The translations under genes were made by a program, and so were the position numbers. The notes beneath the pieces are model-generated. The model was not told the DNA's origin. It was given only the letters and a program-made list of their open reading frames with translations, and did not search any database. Positions 55,349 to 64,000 of a stretch of DNA of 64,000 nucleotides are shown piece by piece. How positions within the stretch are numbered: the stretch's first letter is position 1; each line of letters opens with the position of its first letter. The DNA comes from Bryobacterales bacterium KBS 96. GTDB lineage: Bacteria > Acidobacteriota > Terriglobia > Bryobacterales > Bryobacteraceae. Location: the NCBI GenBank assembly GCA_000381625.1, contig KB906767.1:3863304-3927303 (forward strand), in the 5' to 3' direction.

Positions 55349-56026
55349 ATGCGCATTCTGGTAGTGGAAGACGACAGGGACGTGGCCGATTTTGTTTGTC
55401 GCGGACTCGAAGAAGAAGGCAACAGCGTACAGGTGGTCCACGATGGCGGGGCCGCTTTGCAGCAAGCGCTGGCGCACACGTTCGACATCATTGTGCTCGA
55501 CGTAATGCTCCCGTTTCTGGACGGATTTGAAGTCACGCGCCGCCTCCGCTCTCATCGAAATCAGACTCCGGTTCTGCTGCTGACCGCGCGCGACTCGCCG
55601 AAAGATGTAGTGCGAGGCCTCGATGCGGGCGCGGACGATTATCTCGCTAAACCGTTTTCATTCGACGTGCTGCTTGCCCGGATTCGCGCGCGCACACGCG
55701 GTCCCAGCACGGAACATGGCAAGCGGCTTCAGGTTGCGGACCTGGCGTTGGACCCGGAAAGTCATGAGGTATGGCGCGCCGGCGTCGCTATCGCATTGAC
55801 GCGCACCGAATTCGCCATTCTGGAATGTCTGATGAACGCGGCGGGCCGCGTTGTCACGCGTCAGGCGCTGATCGACACGGTCTGGGGGCTCGATCGCGAT
55901 ATCGAAAACAACACGCTCGACGTTTTTATGCGCTTTCTTCGCGCGAAGGTCGATCAAGGCGATCGTCCCCGCCTGATCCAGACGCTTCGAGGCGTCGGCT
56001 ATAGCGTTCGGGAGCAGCAGTTGTGA
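55349..56026 (+). CDS. OmpR-family response regulator
   Basis: 225 residues. Receiver domain with acidic pair Asp8/Asp9, phospho-acceptor Asp51 (IIVLDVMLPF), Thr79 and Lys101; winged-helix DNA-binding domain from about 125 (RTEFAILECLMNAAG ... TLDVFMRFLRAKVDQ). Its stop overlaps the histidine kinase start by 4 bases (56023-56026). Target genes unknown; neighbours on either side are an S9 protein and an unknown family. Confidence 0.96.
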   Translation: MRILVVEDDRDVADFVCRGLEEEGNSVQVVHDGGAALQQALAHTFDIIVLDVMLPFLDGFEVTRRLRSHRNQTPVLLLTARDSPKDVVRGLDAGADDYLAKPFSFDVLLARIRARTRGPSTEHGKRLQVADLALDPESHEVWRAGVAIALTRTEFAILECLMNAAGRVVTRQALIDTVWGLDRDIENNTLDVFMRFLRAKVDQGDRPRLIQTLRGVGYSVREQQL

Positions 56027-57402
56027 ACCTGCGATCTATCGGATTCCGTCTGACGGTCTGGTATTTCGTCAGCCTTTGCATTATCTTTCTGCTGTTCGGT
56101 ATCGGAAGCAAGCTGGCGATGCAGCGCAGCGCCTTTCATGTGGTTGACGGCGAATTGCAAGCTGAGTTGGATGCGGTTACTCATTTTCTGAAGACGGAAG
56201 CACGCGGCCTTACCGCGGCCGATCTCGAGGATGAACTCAGCGAACTCTCGCAAGGAGGAGTCTCCGTTGCGGTTTCCGATCAGACGGGCAGATGGGTTTA
56301 CCGGTCCAGCCTTTTTGTGTCGAACCGTCTTGAAATTCCAAAGAATCCCGATTTGCAGCGCCACACCGTAAAAGGGGCGCGCGACCGCATCCGGATTGCT
56401 TCGACGCGGGTTGTTTCCGATGGCACCTTCTATACAGTCACGGCGGCGTACTCGATGCATGAGTTCAATCGATCGATCGAGCACTTCGAATCCGTATTGC
56501 TGATCTCAATGCCGGTTGCGCTGTTCCTGGCGAGCCTGGGAGGCTACTTGTTCAGCCGCCGCGCGCTCAATCCCGTGAACCGCATCATCCTCGGCGCACA
56601 ATCCATCAGCTTGCGTAACCTATCCGCACGGCTCGCCGTGCCTCGCACGGGCGACGAGCTGCAACGCTTATCCGAAACAATTAATCAGATGCTGGAGCGT
56701 ATCGAAAGATCGGTCCAGCAGATACATCAATTCACTGCCGACGCTTCGCATGAGCTCCGGGCGCCCCTGACACTCATGCGAACGGCAGCCGAGTTTTCCC
56801 TTCGAAGAGAGCGCAGTCGCGAGGAGCTGGCCGACGCTCTTTCCAAGATCCTTCGCGAGTCGGAGCGAATGTCGCGGCTGATCGACAGCCTGCTGCTGCT
56901 CGCGCGTACCGATGCCGGTGTCGACGACGTGCATTGGGAGCATCTCAACTTGGCCGGTCCCGTGCAGGAGGCCGCCGAGCAGGCTCGCGTGCTGGCACAG
57001 GCGCGTGAAATCGATTACGAGATCCTGCTCCCCGCCGAACCGGTTCCGGTGTCAGGCGATCCCGATGCTCTACGGCGTGTCGTATTCATCCTGATCGATA
57101 ACGCTATTAAATACACGCCATCGGGTGGCGCGGTTTCGGTAAAGCTGAGCCAGCGAAACGGGCACGCCGCGGTTGCGGTCGAAGATACGGGCATCGGCAT
57201 CGCGGAAAAGGATATCGCCCGGGTATTCGACCGGTTTTGGCGCGCCGACAAAGTGAGATCGAGAAGCGAAGGCGGAGTGGGGCTGGGGCTCTCCATTGCG
57301 GAAACCATCACGCGTCTTCATCGAGGAGCGATTGAGCTGTCGAGCAAACCGGGCCGCGGATCTATCTTCACCGTGGTTCTGCCGGGAGATGAACGTAATT
57401 AG
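56023..57402 (+). CDS. Sensor histidine kinase
   Basis: 459 residues: first helix (LTVWYFVSLCIIFLLFGIG), periplasmic sensor region to about 155, second helix (LLISMPVALFLASLGGYLF), HAMP linker, dimerisation/phosphoacceptor His243 in FTADASHELRAPLTLM, and catalytic domain with N box (DNAIKYTPSGG), DTGIGI and the GVGLGLSI loop. Pairs with the upstream response regulator. GTG start; translationally coupled. Its stop overlaps the convergent S9 gene's stop as TTAG. Confidence 0.95.
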   Translation: MNLRSIGFRLTVWYFVSLCIIFLLFGIGSKLAMQRSAFHVVDGELQAELDAVTHFLKTEARGLTAADLEDELSELSQGGVSVAVSDQTGRWVYRSSLFVSNRLEIPKNPDLQRHTVKGARDRIRIASTRVVSDGTFYTVTAAYSMHEFNRSIEHFESVLLISMPVALFLASLGGYLFSRRALNPVNRIILGAQSISLRNLSARLAVPRTGDELQRLSETINQMLERIERSVQQIHQFTADASHELRAPLTLMRTAAEFSLRRERSREELADALSKILRESERMSRLIDSLLLLARTDAGVDDVHWEHLNLAGPVQEAAEQARVLAQAREIDYEILLPAEPVPVSGDPDALRRVVFILIDNAIKYTPSGGAVSVKLSQRNGHAAVAVEDTGIGIAEKDIARVFDRFWRADKVRSRSEGGVGLGLSIAETITRLHRGAIELSSKPGRGSIFTVVLPGDERN

Positions 57403-59534
57403 TTTAGGCCCGTCTCTTTGAGATTTTCGACAAAGAACTCGGTGACCCGGCGAAACAATAGCGTCAGCGCCGCTGGGTCCGTGATACCCTCCGGCTGTCC
57501 GGGAAAAGTAACGATCTCTGCATATCTCCCGGCATCGGTCAACGCACTCTGAAGCGCGAGCGTATTCGCAAAGTGGATGTCCTCGTCTCCCGTGCTTGTG
57601 GCAACCAGAAGTTTGCCTTGAAGCTGCATCGCGGTGGTGACCGGAGACGATTCCTGATATTCCTCGGAATTGGTTTTCGGCGGCCCAAGATAGCGCTCCG
57701 CGTATGCCGAGCGATAGAGAAGCCAGTTGGAAATGGGAGACTGCGCGAATCCTGCTTTGAAATCCTGAGGATCTTTAAACATGGCGTGGAGCGCGAGTTG
57801 GCCTCCATAATTCATTCCCCAAACGCCGATGCGGGACGCATCGACATAAGGAAGCCCGCGCAGGTAGGCGACGCCGTCGCGCTGATCCGAGATCTCCTGG
57901 GCTCCGAAGCGATAGTGAACGGGCTCTTCGAATAAGTGGCCGTGTCCGCCCGAGCCCCGGTTGTCCACCGCGAAAATGAGGAAGCCCTTCTCTGCCATCA
58001 TTTCGTGCCAGAGCGAAATCCACCCGTCCCAGGCATTGCGGACGGCCTGCTGCCGCGGCGCGCCATTCATGAAAACGATGACTGGATATTTGCGGCCCGG
58101 ATTGAAACCGACGGGCTTGATCATCATGGCGTCCAGCGTCGCGTCATCGTGAGTCGTGATCGTCAGAAACTCTACGGGAGATCTGCCATAAGATGAAAGC
58201 CCAGTGGTCTCGTTTGAGTTGATGGCCGCTATCGTCGAGCCGTCCGCGCGCATCAGGTCCTGGCGAGGCGGCGCCATCGCGTTGGAATAGGTATCGACAA
58301 ACGCCTGCCCGCGCGGTGAGATCTTCACGCTATGCCAGCCAGCGGCGTGCGTGATGCGCTTCAATCCCGAGCCGTCGATGCCAATGCGATACAAGTGCCG
58401 CTCGGCAGGAGATTTCTCCGTCGCGGTGAAGTAAATGGACTGGCCGGATTCATCAATGACCGCTATTTGGCACACCTCCCAATGGCCACGAGTGAGTTGG
58501 CGTATTTCGCGCCCCTCGATGTCATAGAGATAGAGATGACGGTATCCGCTGCGTTCGCTCGACCAGAGAAACCGGTGGCCGTCGCGAAAGAAATAGGGCC
58601 CCTCGTTCACATTGATCCAATAAGGATCGCTTTCGGTGAGAATGGTTCGCGAACGGCCGGTTGCGGCGCTGGCAATCAGTAAATCGAGCTTCGTTTGAGC
58701 CCGGCTCATGCGCTCAATTGCAAGGTGCTTACTGTCCGGCATCCATCGGACGCGCGGCACATAAACGTCGCTGTCTCCGCCGGTGTCCATGCGACTCAGT
58801 TCATGCCCCGCTATCTTCGCCACGAACACTCGTACAACCGGGTTTGCCCCACCCGCTTCGGGATACTGTTGCCACAGCACTCCAGCAGGGCGCTTCAAAA
58901 GCTCAGGAATCGGATATTTTGAAACGGCTCGATCGTCGATCTCCAGATAGGCGATTGCAGAGGAGTCCGGCGCCCACCAGTAAGCTGTCTTCAATCCGAA
59001 TTCATGAGAATACAGCCAATCAGGTTCTCCCGTGTGGAGTTGTTCATTGCCGCCCTTCGTGAGCGCCGTGACGGACCCATTGGCGAGATTCATCAGCCAT
59101 AGGTTGTGCCCACGCACGAAGCTGACCCAATGCCCGTCGGGAGAGAACTGAGCGCCGGAGATTGCATCCGTTCCGGTGATGACATTTCTCGATAAGCCGC
59201 TTTTCAGATCGAGCAGGGTGAGGGAAGTACTGGCGCCAAGCAGAAGCCTGCCTCCATCCGGAGCCCAGCGGAACGTCAACTGCGTTTCTGGGTTACCGGC
59301 TCCCGCTTGGAGCTTCAATTTGCCGGCCGGGACAAGCAACCGCCGCGCGCCTGTGGTTGCGTTCATCGCCCAAAGCGAACGCTCGCGATCCGCGCCCGCT
59401 CCGCTCGCTTCGAGGTAAGCGAGCTGCTGTCCATCGGCGCTCCATTCGAAGTCCGGGCTTACATGCCCACTCAGGCTGGGCTCCGCGAAAATCCGCTCCA
59501 CCGTGAGCGCCTTATTTGGCGCAATGGCCTGCAT
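57399..59534 (-). CDS. Dipeptidyl-peptidase IV-like S9 protein with altered active site
   Basis: 711 residues from the first canonical ATG. Beta-propeller N-terminus (ALTVERIFAEPSLSG ... WSADGQQLAYLE) and an alpha/beta-hydrolase C-terminus. The nucleophile motif, normally GWSYGG, is GMNYGG, so Ser is Asn575; the catalytic His is replaced by Glu682 in FPGQPEGI; Asp650 (TGDEDIHF) is kept. The enzyme should therefore not cleave peptides. A signal-peptide-like stretch (FGGFAWAWIPFAFPLACAA) lies in frame upstream of the ATG without any ATG/GTG/TTG; CTG at 59633, 8 bases after AGGAG, would include it. Confidence 0.85.
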   Translation of the reverse strand: MQAIAPNKALTVERIFAEPSLSGHVSPDFEWSADGQQLAYLEASGAGADRERSLWAMNATTGARRLLVPAGKLKLQAGAGNPETQLTFRWAPDGGRLLLGASTSLTLLDLKSGLSRNVITGTDAISGAQFSPDGHWVSFVRGHNLWLMNLANGSVTALTKGGNEQLHTGEPDWLYSHEFGLKTAYWWAPDSSAIAYLEIDDRAVSKYPIPELLKRPAGVLWQQYPEAGGANPVVRVFVAKIAGHELSRMDTGGDSDVYVPRVRWMPDSKHLAIERMSRAQTKLDLLIASAATGRSRTILTESDPYWINVNEGPYFFRDGHRFLWSSERSGYRHLYLYDIEGREIRQLTRGHWEVCQIAVIDESGQSIYFTATEKSPAERHLYRIGIDGSGLKRITHAAGWHSVKISPRGQAFVDTYSNAMAPPRQDLMRADGSTIAAINSNETTGLSSYGRSPVEFLTITTHDDATLDAMMIKPVGFNPGRKYPVIVFMNGAPRQQAVRNAWDGWISLWHEMMAEKGFLIFAVDNRGSGGHGHLFEEPVHYRFGAQEISDQRDGVAYLRGLPYVDASRIGVWGMNYGGQLALHAMFKDPQDFKAGFAQSPISNWLLYRSAYAERYLGPPKTNSEEYQESSPVTTAMQLQGKLLVATSTGDEDIHFANTLALQSALTDAGRYAEIVTFPGQPEGITDPAALTLLFRRVTEFFVENLKETGLN

Positions 59535-59611
59535 TGCCGCGCACGCAAGCGGGAAAGCGAATGGAATCCATGCCCAAGCGAAACCGCCGAATCGCCGGCG
59601 AGCCGTCCGGA

Positions 59612-62600
59612 TTAAGGCGTTGCGAAGGTCCAGGTGAGGATCTCCTGGTTCGCAACGAGGCTGCCGGTGCCGCCCGTGAAGCCGGCGAATGCCGTGTTCG
59701 CGCCAACAAGTGACGGTATATTGACGGGCCAGCTTGTCGAGTAACTCGCGTTGGTAACGGTATCCGTGATAGTCATGGCGAGAGTTGTACCGTTATAGGT
59801 CATGTGCACGGACATTGTATCCCCGCTATGCAGATTGATGCCGGTGTTCGTGAGATCGATGGCCGGTAGCGTGGGCGTCGCGCCGTTCGTGTAGAGGCCC
59901 GTCGAATTGCCGCCTTCACCGCCGTTATTGTAGAGATCGAACTTGACGGCGATGCTTTTCCCGATTCCGCCCGTTCCGCCGGTGTGATCCGGACCGTAGC
60001 CGAGGCCGCCGCCTGCCGGACCAAGCGCGGTTGGACTGTTTCCCTGTATGGTAAACGTAAATCCGTCCGCGGTGGCGTTAGTTAGCTGGAATGTAAAGTT
60101 ATTCGTGAACGACTGCACGTTCAGAGGCGTGCTGTAGAACGCGCTGCCAGCTTGGTAACCCGCATTCGTAATTCGGAGTTTGGATCCGTCGAGCGCGGCG
60201 GATCCATTAAACGCAACCGATCCCGTGGCGCCGGCGAAGCCGCTTCCGAAATTCGCGCCGCCGCTTTGGGTCGAACCGGAACTCGAAAAGCTCCAACTTT
60301 GGACCTCCTGGTCGGCCGTTAAGCCGCCCGTGCCGCCCGTAAAGCCGGCATACGCCGTGTTTCCGCCGACGATCGCCGGTATATTGACGGGCCAGGACGT
60401 CTGAAAACGGGCGTTCGTCACGGTATCCGTAATGGTCATCGCGAGATTCGTGCCGTCATAGGTAATGTGAACGGACATCAAATCTCCGCTATGCAGATTA
60501 ACTCCCGAGCTAGTCAGATCCGTCGACGGTATGGTGGGCGAGGCGCCATTCGTGTACAAGCCGGTTGAATCGTTGCCTTCACCCGAATTGTTATACAGGT
60601 CGAATTTAATCGCGATACTCTTGGGTATCCCGCCCGTCGGGCCTGTAGGGTCGGGGCCATAACCCAGGCCGCCGCCCGACGGACCAAGCGCTGTGGGCGC
60701 GTTGCCCTGAATGGTGAACGTGAAGCCGTCCGCGTTCGGGTTAAGAAGCTGTAGAGCAAAATCGGTTGTAAACGATTGAACGTTCACAGGCGTGTTATAG
60801 AACGCGCTGCCTGCCTGGTTGGTTCCGCCGTTCGTTATCTGTAGCCGGGAACCATTCAGGGCAGCCGAACCATTGAACGTGAATAAGCTGGCGGCTCCGC
60901 TGAATCCGTTCGAAAAGTCAATGCCTCCCTGGCTGAGCTGAATCGTGTATGTCGCCGACGCGACTCCGCTATTCGCCAAACCGGTTTCGACTGCAATGGC
61001 CTTCATCGTTGTAGTTGCGGCGATCATGATCGGGCCAGTGTAGGGCGTGGACGATTTGGTCGGCGTAGTGCCGTCCAGTGTGTAGAAGATAGATGCGCCA
61101 GCCGTGGCATCCGAGATTGTCACGGATTGCGGCGTCGTATAGGTCCCCGCGGCCGGACTGAAAACCGGAGTCGCCACGGCCGTTGTTCCGCCGGTGCTGT
61201 TGAATGTCCACGACAGGATCTCCTGGTTTGCAGTCTGAGCGCCGGAGCCGCCCGTGAAGCCTATGTATGCCGTGTTCGAACCAACCACTGACGGAATGTT
61301 GATCGGCCAGCTTATGGAGTAACTCGCATTGGTTACGGTATCGGTTATCGTCATCGCGAGCGTCGTTCCGTCATAGGTCATATGGACGGACATCGTGTCG
61401 CCGCTGTGCAGGTTGATCCCGGTATTCGTTAAATCCGTGGAAGGCAGCGTTGGCGATGCGCCGTTGGTATACAGACCTGTTGAATCGGAACCTTCGCCCG
61501 CATTGCTGTATAGGTCGAATTTCACCGCCAGGCTGTTCGCGATTCCGCCTGTGCCGCCGGCGTGATCGGGACCGTAGCCTAGTCCTCCGCCTCCGGGACC
61601 AAGCGCCTGCGGACTGTTGTTCTGTATCGTAAAGGTAAAGCCGTCGGCCCCGGCGTTCGTCAACTTGAATGCGAACGTGCTGTCAAACGATTGAATGCTA
61701 ACCGGAGTGCCAAAAAACGCGCTCCCCCGTACATTCATGCCGCCATTCGTTATTTGCAGGCGCGACCCATCCAACTGGGATATGCCGTTAAATGCCATCG
61801 AGCCCGCGGCGCCGGTGAAGCCACTTGCGAAGTTAATTCCAGACGAAGTCGATTGATTCGAATAGCTGGCTGTTCCGACCGCGCTATTCGCGAACCCGCT
61901 CGCGGCCGCAATCGCTTGGATGGTTGTCGCGGAAGCGATTGTGATCGGCCCCGTGTACACGGTCGAGGATGTGCTGGGCGGCGTGCCGTTCAGCGTATAG
62001 TAGATGGTCGCGTTCGGCGCCGTATCCAAAATGGACACCGATTGCGGCAGCGTATATGTGCCTGACGCGGGAGAAAATGTTGGCGTAGCCGCTTGCACGG
62101 TGTACGTTGCGCTGGCGACGGCGCTGCTGCTCATATTTGCCGCAGTCGCGATCGCGTTGATCGTGGTGGAACCGCTCAACGCGATGGGCCCTGTGTACTG
62201 GGTGGATGAACTGGTCGGTGTGCTACCGTCCGTCGTATAGAAGATGGAGGCCCCCGGCGTTGCGTCCGTGATAGTCACTGACTGCGGCAGCGTGTATGTG
62301 CCCGCGCCCGGACTCAGAACGGGCGTCGCCGCGCTTTGCAGGGCGCTTGTACTCACAAACGTCCAGGTCAGGATCTCCTGCGTGGCGGTTAAACCGCCTG
62401 TGCCGCCCGTAAATCCGATATAAGCGGAGTTGCCGCGCACTATCGACGGAATATCGACTGCCCAGCCGTTCGTGTACGTAGCGTTCGTGACCGTGTCGGT
62501 AAGAGCCATCGTAAGGTTTGTGCCGTCGTAGGCCATGTGGACGCTCATTGTGTGCCCGCTGTGCAGGTCGATTCCGGTCTTGCTCAAATCGATCGACGGA

Positions 62601-64000
62601 ATTGTAGGAGACGCGCCGTTCGTGTAAAGTCCAGTGGAATCCGTGCCCTCTCCGGAGTTGTTGTACAGGTCGAATTTGACGGCAATGCTCTTTGCAATAC
62701 CGGCGACGCCGTTCGGTGTATCGGGACCATACCCCAGTCCACCTCCCGACTGTCCCATTGATGTGGGAGTCTTGTTCTGGATAGTGAATGTCATGCCGTC
62801 GGCTGACGCGTTGGTCAACTGGAACGTAAAATCCGTTGTGAACGACTGGATGTTGATCGGGGTATTGTAGAAGGCGCTGGCCGCCTGATTTAGGCCGCCT
62901 GTCGTCAGTTCAAGCCGTGACCCATGCAGCACGGTGGTCCCGTTGAAGGCCATGGTGCTCGAGGCATTTGCAAAGCCGTTGCCGAAATTAATGCCGGAGC
63001 CTCCTACTTGGATAAAATATGCGGCCGATGCGGCAGGGCTGTTCGTCAGACCCGCTGCGGCGCCTATCGCCTTCACTGTGGTTGTCGAACTCACGGTGAT
63101 GGGCCCGGAGTAGAGCTTGGATGAAGTTGTTGGAGTGCTGCCGTCCAGCGTGTAATAGATTGTGGTGTTCGGAGTCGTATCGGAAATCGTAACCTGCTGG
63201 ACCGACGTATAGTTGCCGGCGGCGGGCGAAAACGTGGGTGTGGCGACCTGCGTCGAAAGCGTATAGGTGGCTGAACTGAACGGACTCGGCAGAAAGCCCG
63301 TTGCGCTTGCAAATGCATTGATCGTGGTGGTTGAATCCACCGTGACGGGACCGGTGTACGGAGTCGAGGCTTCGGTCGGATTGCTTCCGTCGGTAGTGTA
63401 GTAAATGGTTGCCCCTGGCGTGGCATCGCTGATTGTCACCGACAGAGTGCCGCTAAACGATTTGCTCGCCGGGCTAAATTCCGGAGCCGCGGCTTGCACT
63501 TGCCCGTTCAGCGGGCCGTAAACGCTGACCTGGTATTGCGCGCCCACGTATACCTTGCCGTTAACGACCGTCGGAACGGTGAATTTCACGGCGTTCCCGG
63601 GATTGTCACGCGTAAGATTTTGACTGCTTGAATACAATGTCGTGGCTACGTTAGTCGCATCGTGCGCCATGAGAATCGCCGGAGCGTTGGTGCTGTAGCC
63701 ATCGCTCTGAATGGTCCATACGATGCCGTTTTTCGTCCCGTTTGCCGATATGCTCGGAGTCGAACCCGGAAAGCCGGACACTTCTTGGGAAACCGAAGTG
63801 GGGGTGGAGGAGAGTTTGCCGTTGATGAAAGAGAACGCCTTTAGCCGATCGTTCCTGCCCCACAGATACACATTGTTATTCCAGTAGGCAGGTACGCTCC
63901 AGAGCCCGCCCGTTTGTCCGCTCAATTCCTGCACGATGTTGTCGGTCGCGTTATACCCGCCCATTGTGTCGCGGTCGACAAGATAGATAATGCCCTGTTT
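59612..64000 (-). CDS. Very large modular surface protein with L-type-lectin-like and chitobiase-C-like domains (5'-truncated by window edge)
   Basis: At least 1,460 residues; the frame is still open at base 64000. The visible N-terminal part is a PQQ-like propeller end (IIYLVDRDTMGGYN, then VYVGAQYQVSVYG). Then: chitobiase/HexA-C-type Ig domains A and B (about 63495-63012), lectin-like domain 1 (62999-62340), domains C and D (62335-61860), lectin 2 (61840-61190), domain E (61178-60940), lectin 3 (60925-60285) and lectin 4 (60265-59615). Lectin copies share FTIQGNSPTALGPAGGGLGYG-type and SGEGNDSTGLYTNGASPT blocks. Ser/Thr-rich. Probably secreted or cell-surface and sugar-binding. Confidence 0.85.
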   Translation of the reverse strand, partial: KQGIIYLVDRDTMGGYNATDNIVQELSGQTGGLWSVPAYWNNNVYLWGRNDRLKAFSFINGKLSSTPTSVSQEVSGFPGSTPSISANGTKNGIVWTIQSDGYSTNAPAILMAHDATNVATTLYSSSQNLTRDNPGNAVKFTVPTVVNGKVYVGAQYQVSVYGPLNGQVQAAAPEFSPASKSFSGTLSVTISDATPGATIYYTTDGSNPTEASTPYTGPVTVDSTTTINAFASATGFLPSPFSSATYTLSTQVATPTFSPAAGNYTSVQQVTISDTTPNTTIYYTLDGSTPTTSSKLYSGPITVSSTTTVKAIGAAAGLTNSPAASAAYFIQVGGSGINFGNGFANASSTMAFNGTTVLHGSRLELTTGGLNQAASAFYNTPINIQSFTTDFTFQLTNASADGMTFTIQNKTPTSMGQSGGGLGYGPDTPNGVAGIAKSIAVKFDLYNNSGEGTDSTGLYTNGASPTIPSIDLSKTGIDLHSGHTMSVHMAYDGTNLTMALTDTVTNATYTNGWAVDIPSIVRGNSAYIGFTGGTGGLTATQEILTWTFVSTSALQSAATPVLSPGAGTYTLPQSVTITDATPGASIFYTTDGSTPTSSSTQYTGPIALSGSTTINAIATAANMSSSAVASATYTVQAATPTFSPASGTYTLPQSVSILDTAPNATIYYTLNGTPPSTSSTVYTGPITIASATTIQAIAAASGFANSAVGTASYSNQSTSSGINFASGFTGAAGSMAFNGISQLDGSRLQITNGGMNVRGSAFFGTPVSIQSFDSTFAFKLTNAGADGFTFTIQNNSPQALGPGGGGLGYGPDHAGGTGGIANSLAVKFDLYSNAGEGSDSTGLYTNGASPTLPSTDLTNTGINLHSGDTMSVHMTYDGTTLAMTITDTVTNASYSISWPINIPSVVGSNTAYIGFTGGSGAQTANQEILSWTFNSTGGTTAVATPVFSPAAGTYTTPQSVTISDATAGASIFYTLDGTTPTKSSTPYTGPIMIAATTTMKAIAVETGLANSGVASATYTIQLSQGGIDFSNGFSGAASLFTFNGSAALNGSRLQITNGGTNQAGSAFYNTPVNVQSFTTDFALQLLNPNADGFTFTIQGNAPTALGPSGGGLGYGPDPTGPTGGIPKSIAIKFDLYNNSGEGNDSTGLYTNGASPTIPSTDLTSSGVNLHSGDLMSVHITYDGTNLAMTITDTVTNARFQTSWPVNIPAIVGGNTAYAGFTGGTGGLTADQEVQSWSFSSSGSTQSGGANFGSGFAGATGSVAFNGSAALDGSKLRITNAGYQAGSAFYSTPLNVQSFTNNFTFQLTNATADGFTFTIQGNSPTALGPAGGGLGYGPDHTGGTGGIGKSIAVKFDLYNNGGEGGNSTGLYTNGATPTLPAIDLTNTGINLHSGDTMSVHMTYNGTTLAMTITDTVTNASYSTSWPVNIPSLVGANTAFAGFTGGTGSLVANQEILTWTFATP

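What the first reader, a model, noticed from the sequence alone, without database searches (positions are those of the whole stretch)
57399..59633. DPP IV-type S9 protein with Asn and Glu in place of catalytic Ser and His
Direct reading of both strands gives Asn575 (AAT) where GWSYGG normally carries Ser, and Glu682 (GAG) where the active His normally stands, while Asp650 remains. The frame is otherwise intact over 711 codons, which argues against recent decay and for a pseudoenzyme retained for binding or regulation, beside a two-component system and a giant lectin protein. The family rule (Ser-Asp-His triad) is established; the role is inference.
Basis: partly seen in the sequence, partly recalled or inferred. 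Interest (0 to 1): 0.62.

Follow-up and report, generated by a model that had tools for sequence, protein, structure and literature searches.

The report
Dead peptidase paired with lectin gene
A soil bacterium carries a secreted-looking protein shaped like the peptidase DPP4 whose cutting site has been rewritten, and it belongs to a small group of such dead peptidases found so far only right behind a gene for a large protein with a sugar-binding or otherwise variable tail, so it probably now binds or holds something instead of cutting.

Summary
The ORF at 57399-59534(-) is a complete DPP IV-type S9 protein with Asn575 at the Ser position, Glu682 at the His position and Asp650 kept. The pseudoenzyme reading is supported and sharpened. 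The only congener held (80-81% identity) has the same Asn/Asp/Glu in synonymous codons; hydrolase-domain dN/dS is about 0.08, within the range of active relatives. Oxyanion Tyr (to Asn), first N-anchor Glu (to His) and Trp-Ser (to Met-Asn) are rewritten too. Three more divergent relatives in the same bacterial family also lack the Ser (Gln, Gly, Asp). All five form one clade among active Terriglobia DPP4s, and all five lie directly downstream of, and on the strand of, a gene with a shared ~560-aa N-terminal region and a variable C-terminus (legume lectin in three, ricin-B lectin in one, none named in one). The neighbouring two-component system is not shared. I infer a secreted binding or scaffold subunit serving that partner, as DPP6/DPP10 serve channels. 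No ATG/GTG/TTG gives the two congeners a shared signal peptide; a conserved CTG behind AGGAG could. New variant of a known kind.

The parts
57399..59534 (-). DPP IV-type (S9B) pseudopeptidase, region from a conserved ATG; 711 codons
   Evidence: model pLDDT 79.3, pTM 0.84; fold matches 2ecf and 5yp1
59535..59633 (-). Probable signal peptide (LDLRNALIRTARRRFGGFAWAWIPFAFPLACAA) from a CTG at 59633-59631; no ATG/GTG/TTG upstream of 59534 in this frame
   Evidence: same CTG and similar peptide in the congener; signal peptide judged by eye, not by a predictor
59642..59646 (-). AGGAG, possible Shine-Dalgarno site 8 bases before the CTG, inside the 3' end of the partner gene
   Evidence: identical in the congener, but also part of the partner's coding sequence
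57810..57812 (-). Asn575 (AAT) at the catalytic Ser position (GMNYGG for GWSYGG)
57585..57587 (-). Asp650 (GAC), triad Asp kept
57489..57491 (-). Glu682 (GAG) at the catalytic His position
58065..58067 (-). Asn490 at the oxyanion Tyr position (Tyr547 of human DPP4; equivalence by alignment of the YGGP motif and recall)
   Evidence: role of Tyr547 from passages of PMC4350108
59004..59006 (-). His177 at the first N-anchor Glu of DWVYPEEL (here DWLYSHEF)
59612..64000 (-). 3' part of the partner gene (1860 aa in all, continuing beyond the window): ~560-aa N-terminal region, then CHB_HEX_C_1 and legume-lectin repeats
   Evidence: Pfam; full ORF L060:2416-7998; homologous gene upstream of the pseudoenzyme in four other genomes
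55349..57402 (+). Convergent OmpR-type response regulator and histidine kinase; neighbour only, not part of the conserved unit
   Evidence: Pfam; no match in the stretches held around the other four pseudoenzymes

Best explanation
A secreted DPP4-fold pseudopeptidase, made from the same message as the large, mostly lectin-tailed protein encoded just upstream, that no longer cuts peptides and works as a binding or scaffold subunit for that partner or for a ligand they share. Shown: the nucleophile is replaced in all five clade members, the other active-site changes, purifying selection in the genus pair, one clade, and adjacency to the partner in 5 of 5. Inferred: lack of activity, secretion, co-transcription, physical partnership and the binding role.
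For: Triads: window N-D-E, congener N-D-E, G409 Q-D-(His region not safely alignable), G432 G-D-H, G431 D-D-Y, against S-D-H in 85 of 91 aligned rows; one row (L042) is cut off before the site, and 9 of the 88 rows used for the tree repeat another row. The five form one clade (SH-aLRT 99; with active-site columns masked and 34 rows, 100/99 and all of 200 bootstrap trees). Genus pair dN/dS 0.145 overall; hydrolase 0.075 against a median of 0.065 (0.043-0.166) in 53 non-independent active pairs. Partner directly upstream on the same strand in 5 of 5: +29, -17 and +25 bases to the DPP start in G409, G432 and G431, and -22 (CTG) or +77 (ATG) in the genus pair. No partner match in the flanks held for 5 close active relatives, with 9.6 to 24 kb upstream for four of them but only 1.6 kb for L035. 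Hydrophobic, signal-like N-termini (by eye) in G409, G432 and G431.
Against: No biochemical or expression data. The partner gene family is common without a DPP4-like neighbour: of 20 further stretches with partner paralogues, 18 had no hit to the DPP queries and the two hits (L117, L126) are other S9 proteins with intact GGSYGG, so partner-type proteins do not need it. G432 keeps the His. Pocket residues differ among the five, so no single ligand site is shared. Selection was measured only in the genus pair; the other three are long branches from multi-contig assemblies, and adjacency could be inherited without interaction.
Confidence: 0.6

Rival explanations
1. The protein is a non-cutting peptide binder: it keeps part of the DPP4 pocket to capture N-termini of secreted peptides (a decoy or sensor), independent of the lectin protein.
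For: Window and congener keep Trp604, Tyr607, Tyr611, Arg614, Arg141 and the second anchor Glu178; that these line the DPP4 pocket is recalled, except for the anchor Glu pair (PMC4350108 passages).
Against: The first anchor Glu, oxyanion Tyr and the Asn of DDN are all replaced; G432 has lost five of the six kept residues. It does not explain the 5 of 5 pairing.
Confidence: 0.15
2. The pocket was converted to other chemistry or to metal binding: Asn575, Glu682, Asp650, Glu651, Asp652 and His177 form a new acidic site.
For: The replacements are polar or acidic and identical in the genus pair.
Against: The set is not shared by the three other members, and the geometry was not measured (no coordinates).
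Confidence: 0.08
3. A passive remnant: catalysis is lost, the gene stays in the operon and is decaying slowly.
For: Propeller dN/dS 0.172 against a median of 0.087 in active pairs, though within their range 0.063-0.221; long branches of three members.
Against: Open frames of full or near-full length in all five genomes; hydrolase dN/dS 0.075-0.083 in the genus pair.
Confidence: 0.1
4. A sequencing or alignment artefact; the true protein has Ser and His.
For: None found.
Against: Independent genus mate with synonymous codons at all three sites; alignment to 2ecf and 5yp1 without gaps at the motifs.
Confidence: 0.01

Closest known systems
Mammalian DPP6 and DPP10 (inactive S9B members, Kv4 channel subunits)
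   Same: DPP4 fold (1xfd and 4wjl are among the fold matches). Ser lost: Asp in DPP6, Gly in DPP10; DPP10 also changes the preceding Trp and the Tyr547 equivalent (PMC4350108, passages). G431 has Asp and G432 has Gly at the same site; the window has Asn490 at the Tyr547 position. DPP6/DPP10 act as subunits of another protein, as proposed here.
   Different: About 24% identical. The window also replaces the His and the first anchor Glu, which DPP10 keeps. Its neighbour is a large, mostly lectin-tailed protein, not a channel. An origin apart from DPP6/DPP10 is likely but was not tested with them in the tree.
Bacterial DPP IV (2ecf Stenotrophomonas, 5yp1 Pseudoxanthomonas)
   Same: Both domains over nearly the full length, 31-34% identity, Z 34.8-37.1.
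   Different: Catalytic Ser, His, oxyanion Tyr and one anchor Glu replaced.
Active DPP4-like genes of another Terriglobia family (L006, L043, L035, L037, L036)
   Same: 51-55% identity; the nearest lineage in the trees.
   Different: Intact S-D-H, DWVYPEEL and YGGP; no partner match in the flanks held (only 1.6 kb upstream for L035).

Membership tests
Peptidase S9 / DPP IV (S9B) | DPPIV_N propeller plus Peptidase_S9 domain | tested here: met
   PF00930 7.5e-97, PF00326 9.8e-40
Peptidase S9 / DPP IV (S9B) | Ser-Asp-His triad in that order | tested here: not met
   N575, D650, E682
Peptidase S9 / DPP IV (S9B) | Oxyanion Tyr and the two N-anchor Glu | tested here: not met
   Tyr to Asn490; first Glu to His177, second kept as Glu178
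Peptidase S9 / DPP IV (S9B) | DPP4 fold | tested here: met
   Model pLDDT 79.3; 5yp1 Z 37.1, rmsd 2.8 over 683; 2ecf Z 34.8, rmsd 2.9 over 682
Peptidase S9 / DPP IV (S9B) | Removal of X-Pro/X-Ala dipeptides | not testable with these tools
   Needs an enzyme assay
Inactive S9B homologues (DPP6/DPP10-like) | DPP4 fold with the nucleophile Ser lost | tested here: met
Inactive S9B homologues (DPP6/DPP10-like) | Retained under purifying selection | tested here: met
   Genus pair only: dN/dS 0.145 overall, hydrolase 0.075-0.083; not measured for the three divergent members
Inactive S9B homologues (DPP6/DPP10-like) | Common descent with DPP6/DPP10 | not tested
   No DPP6/DPP10 row was in the trees; the clade lies among bacterial active DPP4s, so independent origin is the simple reading
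Inactive S9B homologues (DPP6/DPP10-like) | Acts as auxiliary subunit of another protein | not testable with these tools
   Only gene adjacency was seen

The most novel reading that the evidence does not exclude
A two-gene secreted system of Bryobacteraceae in which a DPP4-fold pseudopeptidase is the dedicated subunit of a large glycan-binding protein whose tail is swapped (legume lectin, ricin-B lectin, other): a bacterial, independently evolved counterpart of DPP6/DPP10, down to the same Asp and Gly replacements of the nucleophile in two members, and perhaps with a new acidic ligand site in the dead pocket of the window's genus.
Probability: 0.35. Interest if true: 0.68.

Novelty: new variant of a known kind. 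Interest (0 to 1): 0.52.

Why it matters
Inactive DPP4 relatives are known from animals as channel subunits. A bacterial clade with the same kind of loss, four different replacements of one Ser and a recurring gene partner gives a tractable case for how a peptidase fold turns into a binding subunit, and warns that 'S9 family peptidase' annotations in soil bacteria can be wrong about activity.

Tried and rejected
Artefact or misaligned motif: rejected. Link to the two-component system: rejected as a conserved unit. Motif search for GMNYGG over 399 class genomes: 8 genomes hit, G000 itself and 7 whose ORFs, read by eye, are not S9 proteins and gave no match to the query. Wider spread: with the five-row profile, 399 class genomes gave 30 loci: the window's gene, G409, and 28 that all read S-D-H; weaker matches were not read. 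In 297 phylum genomes, 3 passed E 1e-180: G000 and two that read S-D-H. Only a few candidates per genome are scored in such searches, so divergent members may be missed, inside the family too. Partner N-terminal region: no Pfam or NCBIfam hit in it, two weak PDB hits, the better E 0.012 to a quinone alcohol dehydrogenase, and a useless fold model (pLDDT 30); any thought that it is a beta-propeller is my recollection of such sequences, not a result. Long-branch grouping of the five: the masked careful tree kept them together, but no AU test was run. A ligand pocket shared by all five: not supported. Geometry of the former active site: not measured, no coordinates at hand; loops 162-183 and 529-541 are under pLDDT 50. 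Literature: eight searches listed nine papers in all, none with a title or abstract on a bacterial DPP4 pseudoenzyme; the library lacks most subscription journals, so this is weak evidence of absence. What I saw of papers: passages of PMC4350108; passages and outline with abstract of PMC4873792; the rest as search listings.

Full report
Observation. The minus-strand ORF 57399-59534 is 711 codons without a stop. It has the DPPIV_N propeller and the Peptidase_S9 domain and aligns over nearly its whole length to bacterial DPP IV 2ecf and 5yp1. At the catalytic positions it has Asn575 (AAT), Asp650 (GAC) and Glu682 (GAG). AlphaFold2 on a ten-row alignment gave pLDDT 79.3 and pTM 0.84; the best structural matches include 5yp1 (Z 37.1, rmsd 2.8, 683 aligned) and 2ecf (Z 34.8, rmsd 2.9, 682 aligned), with DPP6 1xfd and DPP10 4wjl also listed. 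Two stretches near the site are low in confidence (162-183, 529-541), and I had no coordinates to measure distances.

The changes are real and kept. Two genomes of the genus are held, the window's own and one other, and both have the gene. The second is the MAG contig whose record is titled Bryobacteraceae bacterium isolate GZL_HY_2_bin.135 (L034 is letter for letter part of G001:C154). It is 80-81% identical and has the same Asn, Asp and Glu in synonymous codons. dN/dS is 0.145 overall, 0.172 in the propeller and 0.083 in the hydrolase domain (0.075 on a slightly shorter hydrolase stretch). As a control, 18 active relatives gave 55 pairs with propeller identity 0.70-0.90; leaving out values with dS of 2 or more, the hydrolase median was 0.065 (0.043-0.166, 53 pairs) and the propeller median 0.087 (0.063-0.221, 41 pairs). 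These pairs share branches and are not independent. The dead hydrolase domain is thus about as constrained as in active enzymes; the propeller is somewhat less so.

More than the triad is rewritten. Against the close active relatives, both congeners also change the oxyanion Tyr to Asn490, the Trp before the Ser to Met574, the first N-anchor Glu to His177, the Asp-Asn after the triad Asp to Glu651-Asp652 and an Asp to Arg608, while Trp604, Tyr607, Tyr611, Arg614, Arg141 and Glu178 stay. Of 12 hydrolase site positions nearly fixed in 24 active rows, 6 are changed in the window; over the whole hydrolase domain 29 of 118 are.

A clade of dead peptidases. A search of 237 genomes of the same family brought relatives at 50% (G409) and 45% (G432, G431). 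They have Gln (G409), Gly (G432) and Asp (G431) at the Ser position; G432 keeps the His, G431 has Tyr, and G409 is not safely alignable there. Of 91 aligned rows, chosen as best matches and so not a random sample, 85 have S-D-H, 5 are these, and one is cut off. In a tree of 88 rows (79 different) the five are one clade, SH-aLRT 99. With active-site columns masked and 34 rows the clade has 100/99 support and is found in all of 200 bootstrap trees. It sits among active genes of another Terriglobia family (f7) and not with the DPP4 genes of its own family, one of which, with intact S-D-H, is also in this genome (L002). That suggests transfer between families before the loss, an inference.

A recurring partner. 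In all five loci the gene directly upstream on the same strand encodes a protein whose first ~560 residues are homologous (54-88% identical to the window's) and whose C-terminus varies: CHB_HEX_C_1 and legume-lectin domains in the window's genome, the congener and G409, ricin-B lectin in G431, nothing named by Pfam in G432. The distance from partner stop to DPP start is +29, -17 and +25 bases in G409, G432 and G431; in the genus pair it is -22 for the CTG or +77 for the ATG. No match to the partner was found in the flanks held for five close active relatives; four have 9.6 to 24 kb upstream, L035 only 1.6 kb. The partner family is widespread: 110 of 237 family genomes have a match to its N-terminal region at 1e-30. 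Of 20 further partner stretches fetched, 18 had no hit to the DPP queries and 2 had other S9 proteins with an intact GGSYGG, one of them on the opposite strand; some stretches end soon after the partner region, so absence there is weak. Upstream of the partner, a TPR gene and a LOG-type gene are shared by the two congeners. The two-component system had no match around any of the other four.

Start codon. In the window no ATG, GTG or TTG precedes 59534 in frame up to the stop, yet the 33 codons before it read, by eye, as a signal peptide and stay in frame without indels in the congener. A CTG at 59633-59631 with AGGAG eight bases before it is the same in both. The AGGAG also lies in partner coding sequence, so its conservation is not independent evidence. 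ATC/ATT at the partner's stop codon is another candidate; the congener has an in-frame TTG at codon -12, where the window has TGG. G409, G432 and G431 have hydrophobic N-termini from ATG or GTG.

Mechanism. The simplest account is that an active DPP4 gene came to lie behind a gene for a large, mostly lectin-tailed protein, lost its nucleophile, probably once, and was kept as a binding or scaffold subunit. After that the old Ser position was free to become Asn, Gln, Gly or Asp. DPP10 (Ser to Gly, Trp to Lys, Tyr547 to Asp) and DPP6 (Ser to Asp) show that such proteins can be auxiliary subunits, and in them putting the Ser back did not restore activity (PMC4350108 passages). Fly DPP10 keeps the Ser and has activity, with a kcat about six times below that of DPP4 (PMC4873792 abstract and passages). 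What is shown here is sequence, ancestry, constraint in one pair and gene order; inactivity, secretion and partnership are inferred.

Noticed in passing
window 59535-59646: Non-canonical start: the shared in-frame candidates for the signal peptide are CTG (behind AGGAG) or ATC/ATT overlapping the lectin stop; same layout in the congener. Gene callers that expect ATG/GTG/TTG would cut the signal peptide off.
   Followed up: partly
window 59612-64000: The lectin ORF continues beyond the window; full length 1860 aa (L060:2416-7998), 84% identical to the 1948-aa congener, dN/dS about 0.10.
   Followed up: yes
L060, L081, L082, L083: Partner C-termini differ (legume lectin, ricin-B lectin, an unnamed tail) behind one homologous N-terminal region that no Pfam or NCBIfam model named here.
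   Followed up: partly
L117:4377-7070: In G445 an S9 protein of another kind with an intact GGSYGG lies downstream of a partner paralogue on the same strand.
   Followed up: no
L002: The same genome keeps a separate DPP4-like gene with intact S-D-H, 38% identical to the pseudoenzyme.
   Followed up: partly
L044:3770-5799; L049:2369-4322: LOG-type and TPR genes upstream of the lectin gene are conserved between the two congeners.
   Followed up: no
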